Part shown: positions 17,770 through 36,880 of the stretch, piece after piece
Numbering within the stretch: position 1 is the stretch's first letter
Layout: the number at the start of each line of letters is the position of its first letter
NCBI GenBank assembly: GCA_028554755.1
Contig: JAPTOF010000025.1
Span: 1,550,001 to 1,614,000, forward strand
Direction of reading: 5' to 3'
DNA: 64,000 nt
Origin: Cordia subcordata
Lineage: Eukaryota; Streptophyta; Magnoliopsida; Boraginales; Cordiaceae
Translations under genes and position numbers: made by a program
The notes under the pieces: model-generated
The model's input: the letters and a program-made list of their open reading frames with translations, nothing else
What the model was told of the DNA's origin: nothing
The model's database searches: none

Positions 17770-19482
17770 ATTAATTCTGATTTTATTCATTTCCATCGTA
17801 ACACAACCTATTCTCCTATTAACATTTCATCTCCATCAGAGTTTGCTCAGAAGCGTGGTGGGGAGTATATTGATATTAATAGTAATAATAATGATAAATG
17901 TGAGGTATGTAAACTAGGAAAACAAAATTTTTGTTGTAATATGATAGAACAAGATGATTTAGTAGATGAGGCATTTTTAGAGGAGAATGAAGAAGTAGGA
18001 GAAGATGGATATTTACAAGAAAGGGTAAGTTTTAATTTGATAAATCAATTTAGAACTAAGACAGAAATTTTACAGGCTCTAGATAGATTACCTTTTTTAG
18101 GAGAAGATCCAATTAAAAAATGGAATTTAAATAAAATATAGTGTAGGTTAAAAATAATAAATCCAGATTATGTAATCAAAACTGCTAACATTGAAGCTCG
18201 CGCCAAAGATGCTGAGGATTTTCAAATGCACATAGGAGAACTAGTTAAGTTAGGATTAATTAGACCCAGTAGTAGTCCCCATAGAACAGCCGCGTTTATA
18301 GTTAGAAATCATGCGAAAATAGTTAGAGGAAAAAGTAGAATGATAATAAATTATAATCAATTAAATGATAATATTTGAGATGATAGTTATAATATACCTA
18401 ACAAATCTTTTTTGATAAACAAAATCCAAGATAAGAAAGTATTTAGTAAATTTGACTATAAATCAGGGTATTATCAAATAAAAATGTGGCCCGAAGACAT
18501 AAAATTGACTGCATTTACAACACCTGAAGGCTTATTTGAGTGGTTAGTAATGCCTTTTGGATTAAAAATAGCACCAAGTATTTTTCAAAGAAAAATGGAC
18601 GATATTTTTAGGCAATATAATGATTTTACTTTAGTATATATACATGATATTTTAGTATGTAGTAGGAATGAATCAGAACATATAGGACATTTAGATTTGG
18701 CATTTAAATTATTTGAGAAACATGGGTTAGTTATTATAAAAAAGAAGGTAGAATTATTTAAAACACAAGTAGAATTTTTAGGAATGGAAATAGGAAATGG
18801 GAAAATTAAGCTTCAAGAGCATATAGCTAAAAATATTTTAGCAATTCCTGACAAATTAGAAGGATTAAAACAGATTCAAGCCTTCTTAGGAATTTTAAAC
18901 CAAGCTAGAATGTATATAAAAGATCTTAGTAAATTAATAGGACCCCTATACAATAAAACCAGGAAAAATGGACAAAGACATTTTAATAGTGAAGATATTA
19001 GATTAGTAAAAAAGGTTAAAGAACAAGTAAAACAACTACCTGAGTTACATTTACCTTTAAAAAGTGGTTATTTGGTAGTTCAAACACATGGGTGCAAAGA
19101 AGGATGGGGAGCAGTTTTATATTGTAAACATAATAAATATTCCCATCAAACTACAGAGAAACTATGTAGATATGTGAGTGGTAGATATAAAGAAAGTAAT
19201 CAGTATTTGACTAGTTTAGATTATGAGTTATTAGCCGTTATTTATGCTTTAAAAAGTTTCAAAGCATTTTTGATAAGTAAACATGAATTTTGTATTAGAA
19301 CAAATTGTGAGGCAGTGGTTAGATATAATAAAAATAAAGATTCTAGGTATACTAATAGATGGGTTAAATTTTTAGTTGCTTTAGGAAATTATCGTTTAGA
19401 AGGAATTGAATGGCAACATATTAAAGGAAAAGACAATCAATTGGTTGATATGTTAAGTAGAAGATTAATTGAAGTGGATTAG
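17770..19482 (+). pseudogene. Copy A: 3' part of the polyprotein ORF (PR-RT linker, RT, RNase H), inactive
   Basis: The copy starts at the protease-RT linker, with a cysteine pattern (CEVC-x6-FCC) near 17,899-17,937. The RT domain has FEWLVMPFGLKIAPSIF and the catalytic box reads YIHD (about 18,639-18,650), so the first catalytic Asp of YIDD is replaced by His. RNase H reads QTHGCKEGWGAVL and IRTNCEAVV where copy B has Asp, so two acidic residues are lost. It ends VDMLSRRLIEVD at 19,482. A TAG and a frame change near 18,141 and a TGA at 18,376-18,378 break the frame. The domains are homologous to caulimovirid RT and RNase H, which copy pregenomic RNA into DNA. Confidence 0.85.
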
Positions 19483-19491
19483 ACAAGGCAA

Positions 19492-19507
19492 TTGTTTTGT
19501 TTTGCAG
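19492..19507 (+). promoter_or_regulatory. Copy A: predicted splice acceptor ahead of the last ORF
   Basis: The tract TTGTTTTGTTTTGCAG ends at 19,507, ten bases after the RNase H stop codon. It is a strong plant-type 3' splice site (U-rich tract plus CAG). The open frame of the last ORF runs through it, so a spliced messenger could place that ORF near its 5' end. In the known rice tungro bacilliform virus genome the last ORF is expressed from a spliced RNA; applying that here is inference. I did not locate the donor. Confidence 0.5.
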
Positions 19508-20630
19508 GAACGACATCTTCATCAGTTCCTCGATCAGATAATTCTTCAGGCAATCAAGTTAATATGTTCCCAGTACAATTTCTGAGTTATGTGGAAATAA
19601 CAGGCCCCAAAGTAAGACAAAGAAGGATAAATTTTGACAACAATAATTTAGAAGTAATTCATGCTGGCAACAGGTTTCAACCAAAAGTTCAACCGGGAAG
19701 CTTATTACCAGAAGACTAGCAAGCTCTTTCAGACAACCTATGGCAATCATATTTAAAGAAAAACAATGGCTGGTTTATAAATACTTTAAATGCTTTAACT
19801 AGCTATTACTTAAAATTAAGATTCACTCAAAAATTCCAGTTTTATTGTGTTTTCAAGGGTGATACACCAGGCGTATACAGATAGTGGACAGAAGCAATGG
19901 TAGTAGGAATAGGCAGATGCAATAGATCTAGGTATAAAGGAGTGCAGACATTAAACAAAGCTATAAATCTCCTTAAAACACATTGTGGAGACAATTTTTT
20001 CATAAGGCCAGATTGTACCATTAATACATAAACAGGCCAAACAGAGTGTTCCAACTGTGAGACTATGATTAAACATTTTAGAACGATAAAAGAACGCAAT
20101 GACTAATTGATCATAGAGAAAACACAGTTTCAGACTATTCTCCAACAACACCAACTAAAAATACTAACCCTCGACTTAGATTTAACGGACTGGCTGACCA
20201 AATATAAAGCACTCTTAGAAAAATATAAGTTCGTTACACAACCCACTGGATCCAGGGTCAAAGGACCAGCTAGTCCTACTATACCGGTTGTAGGTAAAGA
20301 CAAATCAAATCTGGTTATGGAAGTTTACCAAAAACTTCTGAAAATCCTCATCGATTGAGAGAAGGATCAGCTAATCTCGACTATCCGGCATCGGGTAAAG
20401 ACACATCAAGACCGGAAACACCTAATAAACAAACTAAAGAAAGACGCAAATTAAAAAAGGGAATAAAAAAGAAATTACTTCACGATGCAATAGAAAAGAA
20501 AACTAATGATATTCTCAGAACGTGGTTCCAAGACAATCTCCCAAAAGCACCGGGACCCACACCCAAGAAGGCACCAACACTAAAGGCAAGGAGGTAACAG
20601 AAGGCAAGACAGATGAAGACAGCGATTAAA
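19508..20630 (+). pseudogene. Copy A: last ORF (viroplasmin-domain protein), broken
   Basis: The frame begins after the splice acceptor (GTTSSSVPRSDNSSGNQ). It contains a viroplasmin/RNase H1 hybrid-binding-like domain at about 19,835-19,990 (YCVFKGDTPGVYR, stop, WTEAMVVGIGRCNRSRYKG). A Cys/His cluster follows (TECSNCETMIKHF), then a likely coiled coil (QTILQQHQLKILTLDLDLTD) and a Lys/Pro-rich C-terminus. In Caulimovirus-type genomes this domain occurs in the translational transactivator/inclusion-body protein. There is a TAG after LLPED at about 19,717, then stops within the domain, after IRPDCTINT and after TIKERND. The last three also occur in copy B. A further frameshift lies near 20,340. 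Confidence 0.7.
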
Positions 20631-20779
20631 CCAAAGTGGAAGACATATTACAATTATCAGAGTAACACAACAACAGGCAAAAGGATAGACACTCAAGGAA
20701 TCTCTAGAAGGTTACTTTTATAAAGACAAGAAGTTTATCCGTCTATAGTATTTAGATAGACGAGGGCTTTTTGAAAAAG

Positions 20780-35086: not shown

Positions 35087-35099
35087 GGCTCCGATACCA
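35087..35099 (-). other. Copy C: tRNA-Met primer-binding site
   Basis: On the - strand TGGTATCGGAGCC, one mismatch to TGGTATCAGAGCC. It lies 21 bases from the CAAGACAAT sequence of the leader, as at the A/B joint. Confidence 0.85.
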
Positions 35100-35705
35100 A
35101 AATTGGGGGATTGGAGCAGGATTGTCTTGCGGAAGCCTGTTCGCCCTTACCGTAGGATGAGTAGGAGGCATGTTTGTTCTTACAGCACAGACAGGTGAGA
35201 GTTACTTGACTCATGCCAAGTGCTCAGAATCAGCTTGCCCATGTTTCGACAGAGTTGCTAGCAAAAATAAAGGAATAGTATAGATGTTTAATAAATGGTT
35301 GGGTATACCAGCCGGGATCACTAGCGGGAACCTCTTGTGCATCAAGAGCTCATGGACATGCGTTAGTCCCATATGGGCCATTCTCCAATTCATCCTCCAG
35401 TCGGACTCGCTTCCCTTTTTGCTCTATGCAGGACAAGGTTAAAAGAGAGATGGCTTGTGCACCGAATCATGATATTAGCAAAATCACAGTATCCTTTTAT
35501 TTAGGATCAAACTAACTAAACACACCTTTTCTATTCATAGGATCTTTTTGTCATGCGAGGATTTTCACCCTTGTCCCTAAAGTTGTTTTGTTATTAAAAA
35601 ATTAAAAGAGAAAAAGAAGCGTCCTTAAACGGATTACCTTTGTTTTAGTATAGTATAGTATAATATGAGAAGGAAACCCCTCACTTTGCTGTTAACATTC
35701 AAGCT
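35100..35705 (-). other. Copy C: leader with short ORF; promoter and last ORF deleted
   Basis: The leader includes the conserved short ORF (- strand ATG at 35,381, end 35,211). Upstream in the reading direction, the TATA box, polyadenylation signal and nearly all of the last ORF are missing. The sequence jumps from about 25 bases after the (mutated) splice acceptor to AACAGCAAAGTGAGGGG, then over the rest of the early leader to CCTTCTCATATTATAC. Two deletions are therefore needed. Confidence 0.65.
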
Positions 35706-36319
35706 GATGAAAATGCCATTCTTGCAAAACAAAACAATTGCCTTGTCTAATCCGCTACAATTAATCTTCTACTTAACATATCGACCAATTGATTGTCTTT
35801 TCCTTTAATATGTTGCCATTCAATTCCTTCTAAACGATAATTTCCTAAAGCTGCTAAAAATTTAACCCATCTATTGGTATACCTAGAATCTTTGTTTTTA
35901 TTATATCTAACCACTGCTTCACAATCTGTTCCAATTCAAAATTCATGTTTACTTATCAAAAATGCTTTGAAACTTTCTAAAGTATAAATAATGGCTAATA
36001 ACTCATAATCTAAACTAGTCAAATACTGATTACTTTCTTTATATCTACCACTCGCATATCTACATAGTTTCTCTATAGTTTGATGGGAATATTTATTATG
36101 TTTACAATATAAAACTGCTCCCCATCCTTCTTTGCACCCATCTGTTTGAACTACCAAATAATCACTTTCTAAAGGTAAATGTAACTCAGGTAGTTGTTTT
36201 GCTTGTTCTTTAACCTTTTTTACTAATCTAATATCTTCACTATTATAATGTCTTTGTCCATTTTTCCTGGTTTTATTATATAGGGGTCCCATTAATTTAC
36301 TAAGATCTTTTATATACAT
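35706..36319 (-). pseudogene. Copy C: RNase H C-terminal fragment
   Basis: The - strand frame starts abruptly at YIKDLSKLMGPLYNK (36,319) and includes QTDGCKEGWGAVL and LDYELLAII. A TGA follows HEF (about 35,936-35,938), where A and B have Cys. The splice-acceptor CAG after RNase H reads CAA here (about 35,724). It joins copy D in opposite orientation at 36,319/36,320. Confidence 0.75.
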
Positions 36320-36880
36320 TCTGCAATAAAAGTTTTTTTTTTAACTCTCATTTATCCTTCTCATATTATACTATACTATACTAAAACAAAGGTAATCCAT
36401 TTAAGGTACGCTTCTTTTTCTCTTTTCCTCCTCGAAAAATCCTCGCATGACAAAAAGATCCTATGAACTGAAAAGGTGTGTTTAGTTAGTTTGATCCTAA
36501 ATAAAAGGATAGTGTGATTTTGCTAATATCATGATTCGGTGCACAAGCTGGTCTTTCTTTTAACCTTGTCCTGCATAAAGCAAAAGGGGAAGCGAGTTTG
36601 ACCAAAGGCCGAATTGGAGAATAGCCCATATGGGACTAACGCATATCCATGAGCTCTTGATGCACAAGAGGTTCCCGCTAGTGATCCCGGCTGGTATACC
36701 GAATTATTTATTAGACATGTATACTATTCCTTTATTTCTGCTCAAACTCTATCGAAACATGGGCAAGCCGATTCTGAGCACTTGGCATAAGTCAAGTAAC
36801 TCTCACCCGTCTATGCTGTGAGAATGAACATGCCTCCTACTCATCCTACGATAAGGGCAAACAGGCGTCTGCAAGACAAT
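36320..36880 (+). other. Copy D: isolated viral leader segment
   Basis: It begins with CTGCAATAAAAG, the polyadenylation-signal region of the leader (AATAAA at 36,324-36,329), and ends at CAAGACAAT (36,880). It lacks about 40 bases found in the others after CTTTTCCTCC (about 36,425). The short ORF has lost its first ATG (ATA) and could start only at the internal Met (36,630-36,821). No viral coding sequence follows. Confidence 0.75.

What the first reader, a model, noticed from the sequence alone, without database searches (positions are those of the whole stretch)
17770..36880. Possibly undescribed caulimovirid lineage: badna/tungro-type capsid cysteine clusters plus separate movement ORF plus viroplasmin ORF
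The copies together show primer site, ORF1 (157 aa), ORF2 (96 aa, coiled coil), ORF3 (132 aa, basic tail), ORF4 (movement, 322 aa), ORF5 (capsid-PR-RT-RNase H) and a last viroplasmin-domain ORF. The capsid cluster C-x2-C-x11-C-x2-C-x4-C-x2-C is the second motif I know from badnaviruses and tungroviruses. Those genera fuse the movement domain to the polyprotein and lack a viroplasmin ORF. Caulimovirus-type genera have the viroplasmin ORF but not this cluster. The mix of traits does not match a genus I can name.
Basis: partly seen in the sequence, partly recalled or inferred. Interest (0 to 1): 0.88.

Follow-up and report, generated by a model that had tools for sequence, protein, structure and literature searches.

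The report
Split-gene endogenous plant pararetrovirus lineage
A plant genome carries many decayed copies of an ancient Caulimoviridae virus whose movement-protein gene is a separate, slightly overlapping reading frame and which also had a viroplasmin-like gene; some of its traits are shared with known relatives, but the full gene plan is not one I could match to a named group.

Summary
The window holds two tandem copies (A, B), one inverted copy (C) and a leader fragment (D) of an endogenous caulimovirid, about 8.15 kb per unit. That domain is broken here but passes Pfam's cut-off in two of four unmodified sibling segments elsewhere in the genome.

Capsid cysteine cluster plus viroplasmin is not a new mix: Dioscovirus has both. 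The separate movement ORF might have been a shared frameshift, but it looks real: the stop/start overlap is kept in 26 of 28 other genomic loci, and the more distant of these differ with third-codon-position excess, that is, they diverged as viruses.

RT-RNase H trees place it outside the sampled Badnavirus and Dioscovirus groups, in a moderately supported clade of unnamed plant and environmental sequences. RT identity up to 68% (64% to a rice protein) means it may still fall in an already published RT-based OTU.

Verdict: a new variant of a known kind, possibly undescribed as a genome plan.

The parts
17757..29735 (+). Copies A and B: one continuous stretch of about 1.47 genome units, from the protease/RT boundary once round the circle and on to about 21 nt before the primer-site position
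   Evidence: self-BLAST 25902-28957 vs 17757-20788 and 29032-29735 vs 20788-21491
29736..36322 (-). Copy C, inverted; lacks the last ORF (missing between 35704 and 35674), has a 576-nt in-frame duplication
36319..36889 (+). Fragment D: leader/intergenic piece, ends at the same viral position as B (within a few nt) and abuts an (AT)n tract
21512..21524 (+). tRNA-Met primer site of copy A, 1 mismatch in 12
35087..35099 (-). tRNA-Met primer site of copy C, 1 (different) mismatch in 12
34526..34999 (-). ORF1, 157 aa from GTG (first in-frame ATG at 34987); no Pfam hit; rich in ATGs (21, shuffles 13.3)
   Evidence: codon-position differences 19:15:30 in the single other locus that covers it
21784..22074 (+). 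ORF2, 96 aa, coiled-coil type, stop fused to ORF3 start
   Evidence: differences by codon position 327:260:505 over 25 loci
33848..34246 (-). ORF3, 132 aa, basic tail
   Evidence: 275:178:462 over 24 loci
32932..33900 (-). ORF4, movement protein, 322 aa, separate ORF; overlaps ORF3 by 53 nt and ORF5 by 11 nt
   Evidence: PF01107 1.5e-7; junction kept in other copies; 651:417:1113 over 26 loci
22420..23390 (+). Movement ORF of copy A, frame-broken
23380..25872 (+). ORF5 5' part in copy A (coat, CCHC 24859-24900, cysteine cluster 25219-25299, protease), several in-frame stops
30174..32690 (-). ORF5 5' part in copy C, 838 aa open: coat PF22909, two CCHC from the duplication, cysteine cluster 30459-30539; N-terminal part 32691-32942 carries two stops
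17764..19482 (+). ORF5 3' part in copy A (RT-RNase H), two upstream in-frame stops; 356-aa open part 18412-19482
25866..27630 (+). ORF5 3' part in copy B (RT, RNase H), frame break and stops
19483..20600 (+). Last ORF (viroplasmin/transactivator-like), copy A, broken
   Evidence: tblastn with P0125 E 1.3e-17; 559:407:1454 over 28 other loci
27631..28780 (+). Last ORF, copy B, broken; shares three internal stops with A inside a likely gene-conversion tract
20620..21511 (+). Intergenic/leader region of copy A

Best explanation
The locus is the decayed remains of an extinct or unseen caulimovirid, integrated in a plant genome as more-than-unit-length and inverted DNA and altered since. The virus was an ordinary pararetrovirus (Met-tRNA-primed reverse transcription; inferred from the primer site and RT). 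Its ORFs 2, 3, 4 and 5 overlap by 1, 53 and 11 nt (shown), and the movement protein was a separate ORF and not part of the polyprotein (shown across copies). How the later ORFs were translated is inferred, and less sure (about 0.55): ORF1 is rich in AUGs, so simple leaky scanning through it is unlikely, and its own viroplasmin/transactivator most likely drove reinitiation, as in caulimoviruses. ORF2-ORF3 are poor in AUGs, so leaky scanning from ORF2 on to the movement ORF is not excluded. None of the three copies here is intact.
For: Domains. Caulimovirid affinity: the best solved structure for RT-RNase H is 8r0s_A 'Enzymatic polyprotein' (the CaMV enzyme by my recall), 4.7e-77, against 1.4e-44 for 4ol8_A, a Ty3-type enzyme by recall. 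Separate MP: of 40 matches, 30 loci fetched, 28 outside the window; MP stop kept in 26 of 28, an aligned ORF5 ATG in 28 of 28, both in 26 of 28. ORF5 stop before the last ORF kept in 28 of 28 non-window loci of 43 matches. Distant copies differ from the window with third-position excess (MP 651:417:1113 over 26 loci; last ORF 559:407:1454 over 28). Copies A, B, C differ evenly over codon positions (112:96:95 summed over six comparisons), so their divergence is post-integration. AUGs: ORF1 of C has 21, dinucleotide shuffles mean 13.3.
Against: The transactivator function rests on a short domain and a homologue; L006 and L008 score below Pfam's cut-off. The first 114 codons of ORF5 show only a weak third-position excess (438:342:476). 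Between the ORF2 and MP starts there are 3 ATGs in A and in C, against 12.3 by base composition but 4.7-4.8 in dinucleotide shuffles, and 2-9 in 24 other loci; this could reflect leaky scanning. The 28 loci are related copies, not 28 independent viruses, and reading frames further out were not checked copy by copy. Near copies (for example L015 MP 25:16:20) show no third-position excess. The leader hairpin is not stronger than shuffles (z -1.4, -0.7).
Confidence: 0.75

Rival explanations
1. The 'separate movement ORF' is a frameshift in a fused movement-capsid polyprotein, inherited by copies A and C from one decayed ancestor.
For: Relatives P0121 and P0127 have movement and capsid in one frame. 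A and C share the frame change, and A and B share three stops in the last ORF, which shows that lesions can be shared.
Against: The overlap is kept in 26 of 28 other loci, the more distant of which diverged under coding constraint. The stops shared by A and B lie where A-B differ at 10 of 798 sites while A-L003 differ at 49 of 799, a likely gene-conversion tract (tract limits chosen after looking), and are nearly absent from other loci (0 of 28, 2 of 28, 0 of 27, 1 of 25 at A's four internal stop positions of that stretch).
Confidence: 0.05
2. It is a member of an already published RT-based group (the OTU 'Unclassified V. vinifera + Yendovirus + Orendovirus' of PMC13308828, or a dioscovirus- or tungrovirus-like cluster of PMC9794742), so the lineage is sampled although its gene plan may not be spelled out.
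For: RT identity is 64.0% to a rice protein (P0230), 61.4% to wheat and Lolium proteins, 67.9% to P0125. A tree with the window inside the grass-type group is not rejected (AU p 0.20). P0133 of that group is 1711 aa, close to the 5133-bp ORF y of rice ERTBV (PMC526188, passages).
Against: Over RT-RNase H the best identity is 58%. In the free tree the window sits in a 16-row clade (94/93, just short of the tool's starred level) apart from the grass-type group (100/100). Members of that group fuse MP to the polyprotein (P0133, P0138).
Confidence: 0.5
3. Leaky scanning, as in badnaviruses and RTBV, and not transactivator-driven reinitiation gave access to the movement ORF.
For: Few ATGs from ORF2 start to MP start: 3 in A and C, 2-9 in 24 other loci, against 10.5-13.2 by base composition.
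Against: Dinucleotide shuffles of the same stretch give 4.7-4.8, with 197 and 224 of 1000 as low as observed; ORF1 upstream is rich in ATGs (21 against 13.3); a viroplasmin-like ORF is present.
Confidence: 0.3
4. A recombinant between a badnavirus-like and a caulimovirus-like virus.
Against: Movement, coat, protease, RT-RNase H and last-ORF segments find their best relatives in one set (P0121, P0122, P0124, P0125, P0127). Separate MP and CP trees were not built.
Confidence: 0.04
5. A Ty3-type LTR retrotransposon.
For: RT-RNase H homology alone.
Against: Coat PF22909, movement PF01107, primer site; no integrase among the 20 ORFs scanned; stronger match to the caulimovirid than to the Ty3-type structure.
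Confidence: 0.01

Closest known systems
Dioscovirus (Dioscorea nummularia-associated virus, P0141)
   Same: Genome 8139 bp, two small ORFs upstream, coat with zinc finger and the same cysteine cluster, transactivator ORF right after the polyprotein (PMC6135502, passages)
   Different: Movement protein inside the polyprotein; RT 55.8% and RT-RNase H 48.4% identical; joint clade rejected, p 5.1e-4
Orendovirus / rice ERTBV type (grass-type rows P0132, P0133, P0142, P0143, and P0230; assignment inferred)
   Same: RT up to 64% identical; cysteine cluster in P0132, P0133, P0142; AT-repeat flanks (PMC526188; here fragment D)
   Different: One ORF y with MP-CP-PR-RT-RH, no ORF2 (PMC526188), and no recognisable TAV in Orendovirus (PMC5902531, passages)
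Unnamed plant/environmental sequences P0121, P0122, P0124, P0125, P0127
   Same: Closest in MP (43%, P0121), coat (37-39%, P0121; 36-38%, P0122), RT (67.9% P0125, 66.5% P0124, 61.2% P0127, 59.1% P0122) and last ORF (31%, P0125)
   Different: MP and capsid in one frame in P0121 and P0127; P0127 also joins the viroplasmin domain; P0125 carries a second retropepsin-like segment and a dUTPase
Badnavirus
   Same: Coat zinc knuckle and cysteine cluster; small upstream ORFs (recalled)
   Different: MP in the polyprotein, no TAV (PMC5902531); RT 44-50% in the four rows printed; clade rejected, p 3.6e-5
Cotton eCPRVE, soymovirus/caulimovirus type (PMC10458927)
   Same: Separate movement ORF and a transactivator ORF (passages)
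   Different: Capsid and RT are separate ORFs there; not compared by sequence; the only comparable row in my tree is the unnamed P0041 (RT 51%)

Membership tests
Caulimoviridae | RT-RNase H, 30K movement protein, caulimovirid coat domain, tRNA-Met primer site | tested here: met
Badnavirus | RT-RNase H falls inside the genus | tested here: not met
   AU p 3.6e-5, nine badnavirus rows
Badnavirus | Movement domain in the polyprotein, no transactivator ORF | tested here: not met
Dioscovirus | RT-RNase H falls with DNUaV | tested here: not met
   AU p 5.1e-4, four rows of which one (DNUaV) is named
Dioscovirus | Transactivator ORF after RNase H plus the capsid cysteine cluster | tested here: met
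   DNUaV side from PMC6135502
Dioscovirus | Movement domain inside ORF3 polyprotein | tested here: not met
Orendovirus | RT groups with grass endogenous sequences | tested here: inconclusive
   64% RT identity to P0230 (not in the tree); AU p 0.20 for the joint clade, separate in the free tree; naming of the grass-type rows is inferred
Orendovirus | Single MP-CP-PR-RT-RH ORF | tested here: not met
Tungrovirus | RT groups with RTBV | not tested
   no RTBV row among the listed proteins
Yendovirus / Vitis endovirus / other published OTUs | RT within 62% of the reference RT | not testable with these tools
Rosadnavirus, Caulimovirus, Soymovirus, Ruflodivirus, Vaccinivirus, Cavemovirus, Solendovirus, Petuvirus | RT placement | not tested
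   no named rows among the listed proteins

The most novel reading that the evidence does not exclude
An undescribed genus-level caulimovirid lineage on the badnavirus/tungrovirus/orendovirus side of the family in which a transactivator gene was present and the movement protein had been split off while coat, protease, RT and RNase H stayed joined. That would be an intermediate state for the idea (PMC5902531) that acquiring a transactivator let pararetroviruses break one polyprotein into several ORFs.
Probability: 0.35. Interest if true: 0.55.

Novelty: new variant of a known kind. Interest (0 to 1): 0.42.

Why it matters
If the plan is undescribed, it gives a natural half-way form between one-polyprotein and many-ORF pararetroviruses, and shows that gene fusion state changes among close relatives (P0127 all in one frame; Dioscovirus with MP in the polyprotein and the transactivator apart; here MP, polyprotein and transactivator all apart). 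It also shows that the capsid cysteine cluster cannot by itself assign a sequence to Badnavirus or Tungrovirus.

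Tried and rejected
IMG/VR scans with the RT piece and with an alignment found no relative. NCBIfam gave nothing useful, the coat has no PDB hit at E 0.01, leader folds are not significant, and a bacterial promoter scan is uninformative here. I first suspected that the movement/capsid break and the shared stops meant a decayed common ancestor or a defective virus; the genome-wide copies and the conversion tract removed that. 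Rows left out of trees: 68 of 174 proteins covering at least 85% of the RT-RNase H piece went into the quick tree, which put the window with P0145/P0009 at 90; for the careful tree (47 rows) I dropped 22 more for redundancy or long branches, and the window's place inside the 16-row clade is unresolved. One row ('MP without ORF3 overlap') was cut out of register and is not used.

Papers: PMC13308828, PMC5766536, PMC9794742 and PMC10377300 in named sections and, for the first two, passages; PMC6135502, PMC526188, PMC5491270, PMC9719215, PMC10458927 and PMC5902531 as passages; PMC6256638 and PMC7660458 whole; no supplements. That I found this gene plan nowhere in print rests on the listings and these readings; one search returned none, and searches failed.

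Full report
What is there. Self-comparison shows a block of about 19 kb made of caulimovirid DNA. A and B run head to tail from 17757 to 29735, about 1.47 units of an approximately 8.15-kb circle. C lies inverted at 29736-36322. D at 36319-36889 is leader only. B and D end at the same viral position within a few nt, equivalent to 21490 in A, about 21 nt before the primer site at 21512. That is near the place where caulimovirid DNA has its minus-strand gap (established knowledge), and D runs into an (AT)n tract, like the AT-flanked rice elements of PMC526188 (passages).

Genes. ORF1 (34526-34999 -), ORF2 (21784-22074 +), ORF3 (33848-34246 -) and the movement ORF (32932-33900 -) are each open in one copy. 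ORF5 carries coat, CCHC, the cysteine cluster, an A3B-type protease, RT and RNase H and is broken in every copy. The last ORF exists only in A and B and is broken in both.

The viroplasmin claim. In the window the domain is split by a stop and gives only E 0.05-0.1. Three further lines support it. P0125, whose own Cauli_VI match is 3.7e-13, aligns over 19624-20097 at E 1.3e-17 and over 27851-28243 at 6e-17. Two of four unmodified sibling segments pass Pfam's cut-off; the other two score 16.2 and 17.7 against 21. And 28 other loci differ from A in this region at codon positions 559:407:1454.

Is the movement ORF really separate? This was the point most open to doubt. Copies A, B and C differ from each other evenly over codon positions (six comparisons sum to 112:96:95), so their divergence came after integration, and a shared lesion could pass for a viral feature. 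A and B do share three stops in the last ORF. Those stops lie in a tract where A and B differ at 10 of 798 sites while A and L003 differ at 49 of 799: gene conversion explains them best. For the movement/capsid junction I searched the window's own 472-Mb genome: 40 matches scored, 30 fetched, 28 outside the window. The movement stop is kept in 26 of 28, an aligned ORF5 start in 28 of 28, both in 26 of 28. The more distant copies show third-position excess, for example 38:25:70 for L037, and 651:417:1113 over 26 loci; near copies show little or none (L015 25:16:20), and the ORF5 start itself only 438:342:476. So the junction most likely held while the virus was replicating. The ORF5 stop before the last ORF is kept in 28 of 28 loci.

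How it probably worked. ORFs 2/3, 3/4 and 4/5 overlap by 1, 53 and 11 nt (coordinates; junction read). Badnaviruses and RTBV use leaky scanning and clear their upstream ORFs of AUGs (PMC5902531, passages). Here ORF1 is rich in ATGs (21, against 13.3 in dinucleotide shuffles), so scanning through it is unlikely; but from the ORF2 start to the MP start there are only 3 in A and C (12.3 by base composition, 4.7-4.8 in dinucleotide shuffles) and 2-9 in 24 other loci. With a transactivator-like gene present, reinitiation after ORF1 is the better guess, while leaky scanning from ORF2 to the movement ORF stays possible. All of this is inference.

Where it belongs. Over RT-RNase H the best match is 58% (P0125). 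In a 47-row tree the window sits in a 16-row clade (94/93, just under the tool's starred level) of dicot and environmental sequences, apart from the Dioscovirus-plus-Badnavirus clade (100/99) and from a grass-type clade (100/100; its two named rows are Lolium and Triticum). Joining it to the Dioscovirus rows or to the badnavirus rows is rejected (p 5.1e-4, 3.6e-5); joining it to the combined Dioscovirus+Badnavirus set or to the grass-type clade is not (p 0.21, 0.20). Over the RT piece alone, 18 of 177 proteins with matches of 200 aa or more reach 62%, including a rice protein at 64.0%. PMC13308828 (sections read) uses 62% RT identity for genus-level groups and has one group joining Yendovirus, Orendovirus and a Vitis sequence. 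The lineage may fall there. No Tungrovirus, Rosadnavirus, Caulimovirus, Soymovirus or Solendovirus reference was in my tree.

What the mix of traits means. The exact cysteine cluster is in 104 of the 121 proteins P0121-P0241, and in 95 of the 98 that show a zinc knuckle, DNUaV among them (most of these proteins are badnaviral), so it marks a wide clade. DNUaV also has a transactivator ORF (PMC6135502). The one trait that I did not find combined elsewhere, in the proteins and papers that I saw, is the separate movement ORF with a joined coat-to-RNase H ORF and a transactivator-like ORF. P0122 and P0131 lack an MP match in their polyproteins, but whether their starts are complete is not known. 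PMC5902531 proposes that gaining a transactivator let the large ORF split; this lineage looks like a partial split. Wendovirus (PMC9794742, sections) has a different order.

Copy number and age. The RT-RNase H search scored 114 of 5154 candidates in the genome; by my count of that table 56 matches are at 57% identity or more (three of them in this window, some being parts of one element) and 58 at 37-43%. A, B and C differ by 2.3-6.9% by region, mostly 4-5.5%. With recalled plant rates of 0.65-1.5e-8 per site per year that is roughly 1.5-4 million years; this is only indicative.

Noticed in passing
G000, rows at 37-43% identity (for example C23:27217571-27218614): 58 more distant RT-RNase H matches, many with long open frames, in the same genome, probably other caulimovirid or Ty3-type lineages.
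   Followed up: no
P0125 (1304 aa): An environmental relative that joins RT-RNase H, a second retropepsin-like segment, the viroplasmin domain and a dUTPase in one frame; a second protease recalls Wendovirus.
   Followed up: partly
P0127 (2205 aa, contig 9911): A relative with movement, coat, protease, RT, RNase H and viroplasmin domain in a single frame.
   Followed up: partly
19364-20164 and about 27510-28310: Likely gene-conversion tract between tandem copies A and B (1.3% against about 5% elsewhere).
   Followed up: yes
30633-30932 and 31209-31508: A 576-nt tandem duplication inside the coat ORF of copy C that leaves the frame open and doubles the zinc knuckle.
   Followed up: partly
34526-34999 and 33901-34535: ATG-rich ORF1 next to ATG-poor ORF2-ORF3, a pattern that may bear on how the later ORFs were translated.
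   Followed up: partly
55833-57169 and 60692-62033: Direct repeats 4.86 kb apart, 93-97% alike, possibly LTRs of a retrotransposon.
   Followed up: no
356-2014 and 4067-5652: Long inverted repeat, 93-96% complementary arms.
   Followed up: no
48927-49272: 173-nt tandem duplication, 91% alike.
   Followed up: no
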